DNA from: Natronobiforma cellulositropha
GTDB lineage: Archaea; Halobacteriota; Halobacteria; Halobacteriales; Natrialbaceae
DNA length: 64,000 nt
NCBI RefSeq assembly: GCF_025629245.1
Contig: NZ_JANZXN010000032.1
Span: forward strand, 1-64,000
Direction: 5' to 3'
The position numbers and the translations under genes are program-made. This document shows positions 51,908-56,763 of the stretch, one piece after another. Within the stretch, counting starts at the first letter, position 1; every line of letters begins with the position of its first letter. The notes beneath the pieces were generated by a model, which did not search any database, was not told the origin of the DNA, and saw only the letters and a program-made list of their open reading frames with translations.

Positions 51908-53140
51908 TCACTCGGTGAACTCGTCGAGCGTCGCGTACAGCCCGTCTCTGACCTCGCTGACGAGCGGGCCGTCGATGTCGAGACCGAGGACGCGACGGGC
52001 CGCGTGGCCGACTGGCTCTCGACACGCCGGGGGCGAGTAGACACCGAGGCGCCACTGGGAGTACTGCGCCGCCCGAAGCGCGTCGACCAGCGGCGACTGC
52101 TGACCCAGCTTCCGGACCTCCCCGTTGACCACCACCCGCGTCGTCGACTCCGCCATCGAGGGCCGGCCTGGGACGTCCACCAACACGTCGTCCGCACCGA
52201 CACCCGCCTCGTCGGCGATCTCACGCTCGAACTCCCGGATCGACTCGTGGTCGGCCTCGATGATCCCCCCCGGCACGTCGTCGATCTCCGCCCACACCGC
52301 CCGCTTGTACAGCCGCCGGTGGTCGAGCCCCTCCGAGAACGTCGCCGCAGCCTCACAGTTTCGTAACGCGACGATCAGGTCGTGGTCGTCCATCCGCTGG
52401 AGGACCTCGGCGTCGACGTCGTTCTCGGGCGACTCGAGTAAGTGCTCGCTCCCGCGGCGCAACATCGACTTCGCGATCCGCGCCGCGCTGTGGCTGTAGA
52501 CGACCGGGTTCATCAGCGCCCGCGCGACCAGCAAACTCTCGGCCGACTGGACGTTCCCCTCACCGACGACGAGTTCGCCGTCGACGAACGTCACCTCCCG
52601 GACCAGCCGTCCGTGGTCGATCGTCCCGTACGGCACCCCCGTGTGGTGGGCATCCCGCACCAGGTAATCCATCCGGTCGACATCGAGCTCGCCCGAGACC
52701 AGCTGGCCGAACCGCCCCTCACCCGCCACCAGCCCCGCCACCCGCTTCGGCTCGAGGTCGTGTGCCTCGAGTACGCGCGCAATCTCCCCGTCGGTCAGCA
52801 GGTGCTCGACATCGTCGTGATAGCGCCCCGTCTCGCGGTAGGTCACGTCCTCGACGTTGTGACTGAACGGGCCGTGACCCACGTCGTGGAGCAACGCCGC
52901 CGCCTGCACCCGCTCTGCCTGTTTGCCGCCGATACCCAGGTGCTCGAGTGCCAGACACGCGAGGTGGTAGACCCCGAGGCTGTGTTCGAACCGCGTGTGG
53001 TTCGCCGACGGGTAGACCATCGACACCGTCCCCAGCTGTGAAATCCTCCGCAAGCGCTGGAGCGCAGGCGTATCGAGGAGGTCTCTCGCCACCCCGTCGA
53101 TCGTGATGTGATCGTGGACGCTGTCTTTGATGATCTTCAT
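51908..53140 (-). CDS. HD-domain phosphohydrolase (dNTPase-like)
   Basis: The 410-aa protein has the HD motifs HTRFEHSLGVYHLA and LLHDVGHGPFSH and the later DVDRMDYLVRDAHHTG, as in SAMHD1-like/YdhJ-type phosphohydrolases. It probably cleaves nucleotides. It lies next to the CRISPR array's trailer end, and could limit dNTPs during infection, but this is only proximity. Confidence 0.9.
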   Translation of the reverse strand: MKIIKDSVHDHITIDGVARDLLDTPALQRLRRISQLGTVSMVYPSANHTRFEHSLGVYHLACLALEHLGIGGKQAERVQAAALLHDVGHGPFSHNVEDVTYRETGRYHDDVEHLLTDGEIARVLEAHDLEPKRVAGLVAGEGRFGQLVSGELDVDRMDYLVRDAHHTGVPYGTIDHGRLVREVTFVDGELVVGEGNVQSAESLLVARALMNPVVYSHSAARIAKSMLRRGSEHLLESPENDVDAEVLQRMDDHDLIVALRNCEAAATFSEGLDHRRLYKRAVWAEIDDVPGGIIEADHESIREFEREIADEAGVGADDVLVDVPGRPSMAESTTRVVVNGEVRKLGQQSPLVDALRAAQYSQWRLGVYSPPACREPVGHAARRVLGLDIDGPLVSEVRDGLYATLDEFTE

Positions 53141-53213: not shown

Positions 53214-56200
53214 GCTTCAACCCCACAAGGGTTCGTCTGAAACCTGATCTGCGTCGCTGGCGTGTGGGTCGTCGTCTGGGCGCTTCAACCCCACAAGGGT
53301 TCGTCTGAAACACTACTCGAAGCGGAACGTCAGACACACCGCCACGGACTTCAACCCCACAAGGGTTCGTCTGAAACGATGCGTAGTCCGGTCCTTTCCA
53401 CTCTACCTCCTCGAACTTCAACCCCACAAGGGTTCGTCTGAAACGCGGACCTGACTGTCCTGTCTGTTGGGTCCAAACGAACTTCAACCCCACAAGGGTT
53501 CGTCTGAAACGATCTTAGATCACCACCAGTGACTTTTATCTAGTTCGAACTTCAACCCCACAAGGGTTCGTCTGAAACCCTGTGGAGGGGTCTGGAACGG
53601 TGTTCTCCGGAGTTACTTCAACCCCACAAGGGTTCGTCTGAAACACGTCTTCCTCGGTCCAATCGCAGTTCGACCGGAGACTTCAACCCCACAAGGGTTC
53701 GTCTGAAACGTCGTAGACGTAGATGTCCACACGGTTGGCGTCGACTTCAACCCCACAAGGGTTCGTCTGAAACACGGCTCTCGAGACGATCACCGGCGAC
53801 TCGCCAACCCCACTTCAACCCCACAAGGGTTCGTCTGAAACGCGCGCTGTCGATGGCCTCGACGAGCGCGTCGACCACTTCAACCCCACAAGGGTTCGTC
53901 TGAAACGCGCGCTGTCGATGGCCTCGACGAGCGCGTCGACCACTTCAACCCCACAAGGGTTCGTCTGAAACGAGGAAGACCTGGACGTCCTCCGAGAGGC
54001 AGGCCAGACTTCAACCCCACAAGGGTTCGTCTGAAACCGCTCGGTGTCGTCCCGTGCGGACACTCGTCGTACACTTCAACCCCACAAGGGTTCGTCTGAA
54101 ACCCAGACAAGTCGACCGCAAGGAAGGGGAACAGTTAACTTCAACCCCACAAGGGTTCGTCTGAAACTCTAGAAGACGCTGCAGAAGAGTGGCTAGGAGA
54201 ACTTCAACCCCACAAGGGTTCGTCTGAAACCACGTCCTCGCCGAGTACGTCATCGACGACTTAGAACTTCAACCCCACAAGGGTTCGTCTGAAACAACCG
54301 TAGACTTTAGCAAGCCAGGCCGGGCGGGACTTCAACCCCACAAGGGTTCGTCTGAAACTAGAGAGAGACGGGAGAGTCATCACCTACCAGCTGATGACTT
54401 CAACCCCACAAGGGTTCGTCTGAAACCGGTGCCCAAGCCTCTCCGAAGTAGCAGGTCCGGGGACTTCAACCCCACAAGGGTTCGTCTGAAACCTCACGTC
54501 GTACGATGCCAGGTCGCCCTCTCCACGACTTCAACCCCACAAGGGTTCGTCTGAAACCAAATCCAACTCACGGAGGCCGTGCAATTCTCGGAGGACTTCA
54601 ACCCCACAAGGGTTCGTCTGAAACCAGCAGCGGCAACGGACGGTGGCAGCGATGAGTGAACTTCAACCCCACAAGGGTTCGTCTGAAACCCGCGACAAAG
54701 ACGACAGACCGCGCGTTCCGCGACGGACTTCAACCCCACAAGGGTTCGTCTGAAACTGTTCACCGACGACGACCTCACCGGGACCTACGTCCGACTTCAA
54801 CCCCACAAGGGTTCGTCTGAAACCTGTCCTCCCACCGGAACACGGGTTCACTCGTCCGACTTCAACCCCACAAGGGTTCGTCTGAAACACGTCGACGACG
54901 ACGAAGACGACCAGCAGACGATGACCACTTCAACCCCACAAGGGTTCGTCTGAAACCCCGATAGGCGATGACGAGATCGACGCCCCAGTCCATACTTCAA
55001 CCCCACAAGGGTTCGTCTGAAACTGCGCTCGCTCAACCTGTTCGACGAGCTCGAAGTAACTTCAACCCCACAAGGGTTCGTCTGAAACCGTGTACGCCCG
55101 CTCCGGTTGCAGGATCTCGAGCGGACTTCAACCCCACAAGGGTTCGTCTGAAACTCGCGCCCGTTAGGCCATTAGTTGCCATGCAACAACTTCAACCCCA
55201 CAAGGGTTCGTCTGAAACTCGTCGACAAACAGCGTCTCGCCCTGCGACCAGCGACTTCAACCCCACAAGGGTTCGTCTGAAACGATTCCCAGACGACTTT
55301 GGTTCAGACCGACGGCGGCGACTTCAACCTCACAAGGGTTCGTCTGAAACGTGTTTGCGACAGAGATAGAGTGTCTTTATCGAATAACTTCAACCCCACA
55401 AGGGTTCGTCTGAAACCGTGGTTCGACTCCACAGGCGGGCTTCAGGACACATACTTCAACCCCACAAGGGTTCGTCTGAAACTTTCTGTCAGTCGACTCG
55501 ACGTAACTGTACTCTTCACTTCAACCCCACAAGGGTTCGTCTGAAACTCGCGATGTATTCGGGGTTGAGGTCGATGCCCACACTTCAACCCCACAAGGGT
55601 TCGTCTGAAACAGTATCCACGAGCACCCGACCCCACCGACGAGGCCACTTCAACCCCACAAGGGTTCGTCTGAAACGGCACTATCGCTTGCGAATCAGAC
55701 GGCTTCGGCTGACTTCAACCCCACAAGGGTTCGTCTGAAACCGATCGTTGGATTGATACCTCTTTATGTGGTTCTCACTTCAACCCCACAAGGGTTCGTC
55801 TGAAACGCGCACCGAGGTGCCAGAACGCATCGAGGCGGTTACTTCAACCCCACAAGGGTTCGTCTGAAACGCGGTGCCTTCGTCGACACCGAAGTGTCTG
55901 ACGAGACTTCAACCCCACAAGGGTTCGTCTGAAACTCGGCTCGTTGGCGTCATCACGGATGTCAGCGTAAACACTTCAACCCCACAAGGGTTCGTCTGAA
56001 ACAGAGTCGCCGTCAACCGAGACGGGCGACGAGATCCGTACTTCAACCCCACAAGGGTTCGTCTGAAACTACACAGATTCGTCGGAGCCGGAGGACGAGA
56101 GACCGACTTCAACCCCACAAGGGTTCGTCTGAAACCGGAGAACTTCTACGAGGCTCACGGCATGGACGACACTTCAACCCCACAAGGGTTCGTCTGAAAC

Positions 56201-56662
56201 GCGCCCAGAACGGTGCGAGATAGACGGATGTTACCGTACTTCAACCCCACAAGGGTTCGTCTGAAACGACGGATCGGCGTTCTATATGCTCTGCCGAGTC
56301 CGACTTCAACCCCACAAGGGTTCGTCTGAAACAACGCCCCAGTCCATGTAGTGCGTCTGGTCGTCGAACTTCAACCCCACAAGGGTTCGTCTGAAACCAT
56401 GGCTGTACTGCAAGTTGTCTCCGCTTCCCGCTACTTCAACCCCACAAGGGTTCGTCTGAAACTCTGGTCGTCGAGAACGTATTCCAGCTCGTCGTTGATA
56501 CTTCAACCCCACAAGGGTTCGTCTGAAACCTTTCGACACGTTTTTATACCGGGGTCGCGTAGCTGAACTTCAACCCCACAAGGGTTCGTCTGAAACGAGT
56601 CGCCGTCAACCGAGGCGGGAGACGAGATTCGTACTTCAACCCCACAAGGGTTCGTCTGAAAC
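53214..56662 (-). CRISPR. Type I-B CRISPR array, 53 repeats and 52 spacers
   Basis: The 30-bp repeat, read on the minus strand, starts GTTTCAGACGAACCC, has TTGTGGG in the middle and ends GTTGAAGT, close to the Haloferax volcanii repeat. Spacers are 33-38 nt. The array is transcribed leftward from a leader beside cas2. The two left-most (oldest) repeats end in C, not T. One repeat (55321-55350) has a C-to-T change. Spacers 10 and 11 are identical. Repeats contain a 5-bp stem (AACCC/GGGTT). Confidence 0.99.
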
Positions 56663-56763
56663 CGTGCCCAATTTCTGGGCCACAGGTACTCTCTCGAGCG
56701 ATGTGCACTAAGTGTTTCCGTCGACCCTCGATACCCGCTGTGGGGGTGGGGGTCGACGGACGG
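56663..56763 (-). promoter_or_regulatory. CRISPR leader with two inverted repeats
   Basis: The leader lies between the first repeat and the cas2 stop. Near the repeat is GCCCA-ATTTC-TGGGC (56667-56681). Near cas2 is a perfect 10-bp inverted repeat, CCGTCGACCC (56718-56727) and GGGTCGACGG (56750-56759), with a 22-nt loop. This may end cas mRNA or help integration. Confidence 0.75.

What the first reader, a model, noticed from the sequence alone, without database searches (positions are those of the whole stretch)
56003..56632. Two spacers are three-SNP variants of one target with the same PAM position
Spacer 43 (56003-56039) and the newest spacer 52 (56597-56632) are alike except at positions 4, 13 and 18 counted from the PAM side. 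In the frame encoding RISSP(V/A)SVDGDS the first two changes are synonymous (CGG/CGA, TCG/TCT) and the third is Val to Ala, so both come from the same gene of diverged viruses. Position 4 lies in the type I seed, so the older spacer would probably fail on the newer virus. The newest entry in the array is thus a re-acquisition against an escape variant.
Basis: partly seen in the sequence, partly recalled or inferred. Interest (0 to 1): 0.85.

Follow-up and report, generated by a model that had tools for sequence, protein, structure and literature searches.

The report
Archaeal CRISPR array re-samples one target
A salt-loving archaeon's CRISPR memory holds two slightly different copies of the same short invader sequence, the newest one included, so it was very probably hit twice by related but diverged viruses or plasmids; this is a neat natural example of a known process, and escape from the older memory is likely but not shown.

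Summary
Spacer 43 (56003-56039) and leader-proximal spacer 52 (56597-56632) align without gaps from their PAM side over 36 nt, differing only at positions 4, 13 and 18. Chance pairs among the genome's 168 spacers score 13 or less; this pair scores 27. The leader, conserved beside all three arrays of the genome, confirms that spacer 52 is the newest. Different lengths (37 and 36 nt) and unrelated neighbours point to two independent captures, not a copied spacer.

The coding argument is weak: an opposite-strand frame, ESPSTE(T/A)GDEIR, fits as well as RISSP(V/A)SVDGD, and about 55% of random three-change variants do as well in some frame. No protospacer was found in the searched viral, phage, plasmid, genome or own-genome data, so PAM, gene, virus and escape status are unproven. 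Three changes, one at a base that type I complexes leave unpaired, look more like standing divergence than one selected escape mutation.

Best reading: type I-B re-acquisition from a diverged relative of the first invader, probably primed by the old spacer. Spacers 27, 48 and 50 of the same array form a second such group. Closely matching precedent exists in Legionella.

The parts
56003..56039 (-). spacer 43 (A43), older variant, 37 nt
56597..56632 (-). spacer 52 (A52), leader-proximal newest spacer, 36 nt; differs from A43 at positions 4, 13 and 18
53214..56663 (-). CRISPR array A: 53 repeats of GTTTCAGACGAACCCTTGTGGGGTTGAAGT (the two most leader-distal copies end in C; one copy has an internal change), 52 spacers
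56664..56763 (-). leader, conserved with the flanks of the two other arrays (contig C7)
56764..57027 (-). cas2
   Evidence: NCBIfam TIGR01573
57024..58049 (-). cas1 (type I-B)
   Evidence: NCBIfam TIGR03641
58019..58567 (-). cas4
   Evidence: NCBIfam TIGR00372
58564..61239 (-). cas3 (HD nuclease plus helicase)
   Evidence: NCBIfam TIGR01587, TIGR01596
61190..61993 (-). cas5b
   Evidence: NCBIfam TIGR02592
61990..63078 (-). cas7 (Csh2)
   Evidence: NCBIfam TIGR02590
63080..64000 (-). cas8b (Csh1), runs past the window to contig position 65233; cas6 follows at about 65220-66035
54957..54993 (-). spacer 27, oldest member of a second related group; its first 14 nt equal positions 21-34 of spacer 48, then C/T at position 15
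56333..56367 (-). spacer 48, overlaps spacers 50 and 27; its TTC PAM lies inside spacer 50
56463..56499 (-). spacer 50 (37 nt); its first 33 nt equal spacer B66 of the array on contig C7

Best explanation
Spacers 43 and 52 are two independent acquisitions, by one complete type I-B CRISPR-Cas system, of the same PAM-anchored protospacer from two related but diverged invaders (virus or plasmid), the second capture being the most recent event in the array. Most likely the crRNA of spacer 43 recognised the later invader imperfectly (seed mismatch at 4, further mismatch at 13, a probably silent one at 18), which impaired direct clearance but could prime Cas3-dependent acquisition, and the same site was taken again with the current sequence. 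Shown: the two variants, their order, shared PAM-side end, different lengths, intact cas operon. Inferred: TTC PAM, loss of interference by spacer 43, priming, nature of the invader.
For: 33 of 36 identical in register, score 27 against chance 13. Lengths 37 and 36 nt and unrelated neighbouring spacers argue for separate integrations. Leader conservation fixes the order. Complete cas6-8b-7-5-3-4-1-2 operon next to the array. In the same class of system, H. hispanica type I-B, acquisition from a virus strictly required a pre-existing partially matching spacer (PMC3936756). Haloarchaeal I-B has a 10-nt seed (PMC4326828). A second group in the same array, 27, 48 and 50, tiles one 82-nt stretch in one open frame with the TTC PAM of 48 lying inside 50. 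There, 48 and 50 lie upstream of 27 on the non-target strand, as priming favours in H. hispanica (86% of upstream protospacers), and the 48-type sequence gives 27 a TAC PAM, which did not block adaptation in H. hispanica.
Against: No protospacer of either variant was found in any collection, so PAM and target are unseen. Re-capture of the very same site is not a specific sign of priming and is expected by random re-sampling at this array size. The only haloarchaeal interference data used are from other species.
Confidence: 0.72

Rival explanations
1. Strict escape: the virus lineage hit by spacer 43 mutated at position 4 under selection by spacer 43, and spacer 52 is the counter-acquisition.
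For: Position 4 is in the seed; the newer spacer is the variant one; the same pattern with proven targets is reported in Legionella (PMC5071653).
Against: Two of the three differences are outside the seed and one is at an every-sixth, unpaired position; 8% divergence looks like a separate lineage rather than a one-step escape; no virus genomes to test it.
Confidence: 0.25
2. Neutral re-sampling: two co-circulating relatives of one invader were each sampled by ordinary acquisition, and the same PAM site was hit twice by chance, without any role of spacer 43.
For: A simple simulation gives 1.3-2.4 same-start pairs among 168 spacers from 12-6 families of 40 kb; an identical same-start pair exists between arrays (A50/B66).
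Against: The one haloarchaeal I-B system tested showed no acquisition without priming (PMC3936756); a spacer with 3 mismatches would be expected to prime.
Confidence: 0.4
3. Two paralogous copies of one gene in a single invader or host replicon.
For: Not excluded for unseen invaders (no tool result supports it).
Against: Own genome has no copy other than the two spacers at up to 3 mismatches; no paralogue pair in 391 related genomes.
Confidence: 0.07
4. Duplication of spacer 43 within the array followed by mutation.
For: Duplicated spacers do occur here (10 = 11, B33 = B46).
Against: Those duplicates are identical, this pair differs by 3 substitutions and 1 nt in length; spacer 52 sits at the leader end with unrelated neighbours.
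Confidence: 0.02

Closest known systems
Legionella pneumophila ST222 type I-C spacer pairs against LME-1 (Rao et al. 2016, PMC5071653)
   Same: Within one array an older and a newer spacer hit overlapping protospacers; the older carries seed or PAM mismatches to the later target; read by the authors as naturally primed acquisition after escape.
   Different: There the target element is known, and escape by polymorphic protospacers of the same element was tested by plasmid transformation in another strain; here no target is known, the system is type I-B in an archaeon, and the two spacers share the very same start.
Haloarcula hispanica type I-B primed adaptation to HHPV-2 (Li et al. 2014, PMC3936756)
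   Same: Type I-B haloarchaeal system; partially matching old spacer primes new acquisition; TTC PAM; upstream, non-target-strand bias that fits the 27/48/50 group.
   Different: Laboratory infection with known virus; the present case is an unlabelled natural record.
Pectobacterium atrosepticum type I-F priming and interference-driven acquisition (PMC5059440)
   Same: New spacers cluster near the recognised protospacer, starting 5' of it on the displaced strand.
   Different: Different subtype and host; plasmids rather than a natural invader.

Membership tests
Type I-B CRISPR-Cas system | cas6-cas8b-cas7-cas5-cas3-cas4-cas1-cas2 operon next to the array | tested here: met
   NCBIfam matches above curated cut-offs for all eight
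Type I-B CRISPR-Cas system | repeat array with conserved leader next to the newest spacer | tested here: met
   53 repeats; leader shared by three arrays
Re-acquisition of one protospacer from a variant invader | two spacers in register, nearly identical, not copies of each other | tested here: met
Re-acquisition of one protospacer from a variant invader | each spacer matches a real invader genome at the same locus | tested here: inconclusive
   no protospacer found in viral contigs, phage records, plasmids, genome contigs or 391 Halobacteria genomes
Primed adaptation after escape | old spacer mismatched in seed or PAM of the later target | tested here: inconclusive
   position 4 mismatch lies in the seed as defined for haloarchaeal I-B, but the later target is inferred only from spacer 52
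Primed adaptation after escape | old crRNA fails to interfere but triggers acquisition | not testable with these tools
   needs plasmid or virus assays

The most novel reading that the evidence does not exclude
The array records repeated rounds of counter-acquisition in an archaeon: spacer 43 followed by 52 at the same site (seed change), and spacer 27 followed by 48 and 50 walking upstream on the non-target strand after a probable PAM change (inferred TTC to TAC) and a change at position 15 of the old target.
Probability: 0.3. Interest if true: 0.5.

Novelty: new member of a known kind. Interest (0 to 1): 0.3.

Why it matters
If the later invader did evade spacer 43 and was re-captured at the same site, the array is a natural record, in order, of escape and counter-acquisition in a haloarchaeal type I-B system, where priming has so far been shown mainly in the laboratory. 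It gives ready-made spacer and target pairs (43/52 and 27/48) for testing seed and PAM tolerance. As it stands it is a tidy example of a documented process.

Tried and rejected
Protospacer searches, all negative: blastn of spacer 43 against phages and spacer 52 against plasmids (best hits such as HRTV-4, Microbacterium and Streptomyces phages at E >= 0.5, chance level). Exact and codon-degenerate patterns in both frames over viral contigs. Codon-degenerate RISSP pattern over genome contigs (one hit in Pandoraea, taken as chance). 391 Halobacteria genomes with up to 3 mismatches. All array-A spacers against 125 genomes of the same family. Two 88-89% hits of spacer 43 there are not homologous (one reads antisense to a dapB-like gene) and were rejected. 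The composite 27/48/50 peptide INDELEYVLDDQTHYMDWGVDLVIAYR had no viral match and only a weak, non-significant likeness to what I take for ribonucleotide reductase small subunits (from memory of that motif), with the usual metal-ligand residues not kept. Whole array A against phage records: nothing above chance. Most of the array-B spacers against the same 125 genomes, to learn the PAM from mapped targets: no convincing target. The original Maier 2013 seed paper is not held, so the seed length is cited second-hand.

Full report
Observation. The window holds a CRISPR array at 53214-56663 with 53 repeats and 52 spacers. The repeat reads GTTTCAGACGAACCCTTGTGGGGTTGAAGT on the minus strand, so crRNAs are read from the minus strand. 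Among all pairs of the 168 spacers in the three arrays of this genome, this pair scores 27, while two shuffled sets reach at most 13. The similarity is not chance.

Order. The flank at 56664 to about 56760 shares long stretches (for example TCCGTCGACCCCCACCCC, GGTCGACGGAAAC, CGCTCGAGAGAGT) with the flanks of one or both of the two other arrays on contig C7, and cas2 lies just beyond it. This is the leader, so spacer 52 is the newest and 43 the tenth from the leader. The system is complete: cas6, cas8b, cas7, cas5, cas3, cas4, cas1 and cas2 all match their NCBIfam models above the cut-offs.

Independent captures. The two spacers differ in length, have unrelated neighbours and differ by three substitutions, whereas true duplicates in this genome (10 = 11, B33 = B46) are identical. 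Duplication plus mutation is therefore unlikely. Neither variant occurs elsewhere in the own assembly with up to three mismatches.

Coding argument. In the frame RISSP(V/A)SVDGD two changes are synonymous. But the opposite-strand frame ESPSTE(T/A)GDEIR does equally well (GGC/GGA and ATC/ATT synonymous, ACG/GCG Thr to Ala). In 20,000 random triple substitutions, 55% reach two or more synonymous changes in the best open frame. The frame, and so the 'same gene' claim, rests on no significant evidence, although variation at one locus of related elements remains the natural reading.

Target. No protospacer was found: viral contigs by exact and codon-degenerate patterns in both frames, genome contigs (one chance hit), phages and plasmids, 391 Halobacteria genomes with up to three mismatches, and 125 genomes of the same family. 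The PAM is thus inferred from the shared spacer start only. Within the array itself, the base triplet before the spacer-48 sequence inside spacer 50 is TTC, the PAM reported for H. hispanica (91 of 97 protospacers; PMC3936756).

Would spacer 43 fail on the 52-type target? The haloarchaeal I-B seed is given as 10 nt (PMC4326828), so position 4 lies inside it. Position 18 is a multiple of six; the same paper states that every sixth base of the guide is not paired, so this difference probably has no effect. Position 13 lies outside the seed. Impaired interference is likely but untested.

Escape or divergence? A selected escape mutant usually shows one seed or PAM change (established knowledge). 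Here three changes in 36 nt, two of them of little use for escape, look more like a diverged relative. Priming is still plausible, since in H. hispanica acquisition from a purified virus strictly required a partially matching old spacer. A sampling simulation shows that hitting the same PAM site twice is expected: 1.3 to 2.4 same-start pairs for 12 to 6 invader families of 40 kb. The number of families is assumed, not measured. So the pair by itself does not prove priming.

A second group strengthens the picture. Spacers 50, 48 and 27 tile an 82-nt stretch, starting at offsets 0, 25 and 45, all in one open frame (INDELEYVLDDQTHYMDWGVDLVIAYR). The TTC PAM of 48 lies inside 50. Spacer B66 on another array equals the first 33 nt of 50. 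Spacer 27 is older; in the 48-type sequence its site is preceded by TAC and differs at position 15. TAC did not block primed adaptation in H. hispanica, and primed spacers there fell on the non-target strand in 86% of upstream cases. Spacers 48 and 50 lie upstream of 27 on that strand. With two events this is suggestive, not proof; that the original 27 target had TTC is assumed. The 48/50 overlap is only 12 nt, read directly from the sequences; the score did not cover overlaps that short.

Comparison. Two spacer pairs in Legionella pneumophila Toronto-2005 (type I-C) show the same pattern: newer perfect match, older spacer with seed or PAM mismatches, interpreted as naturally primed acquisition after escape (PMC5071653). 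The present case is a new member of that kind, in an archaeal type I-B system, without a known target.

Verdict. Observation confirmed; interpretation partly supported: re-acquisition from a variant is very likely, priming plausible, selection of the variant by spacer 43 unproven, and the reading frame not established.

Noticed in passing
window 53842-53876 and 53907-53941; own genome C15:103270-103304: Identical adjacent spacers 10 and 11 match the host's own gene for a SufS-like cysteine desulfurase 35/35; the 5' flank is GGA, not TTC, so the self-match is probably harmless.
   Followed up: partly
L011:3282-3316 (spacer B14); own genome C45:150403-150437: Spacer B14 matches the host's uvrA-like gene 35/35 (antisense) with 5' flank AAT, again no TTC PAM; a second tolerated self-match.
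   Followed up: partly
window 54957-54993, 56333-56367, 56463-56499; L011:6696-6728: Spacers 27, 48, 50 and B66 tile one 82-nt target in one open frame; B66 and 50 share the same protospacer start with lengths 33 and 37 in two different arrays.
   Followed up: yes
L011:4529-4562 (B33) and L011:5382-5415 (B46): Two identical, non-adjacent 34-nt spacers in the array on contig C7, with different neighbours.
   Followed up: no
L011:2434-2469 (B1) and L011:7223-7259 (B74): The leader-distal spacer B1 and the newer B74 share GGGACATTATCGCC at an offset of 17, just above the chance level; possibly overlapping targets.
   Followed up: no
window 51908-53140: An HD-domain protein gene with weak likeness to dGTP triphosphohydrolases lies next to the trailer end of the array.
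   Followed up: no
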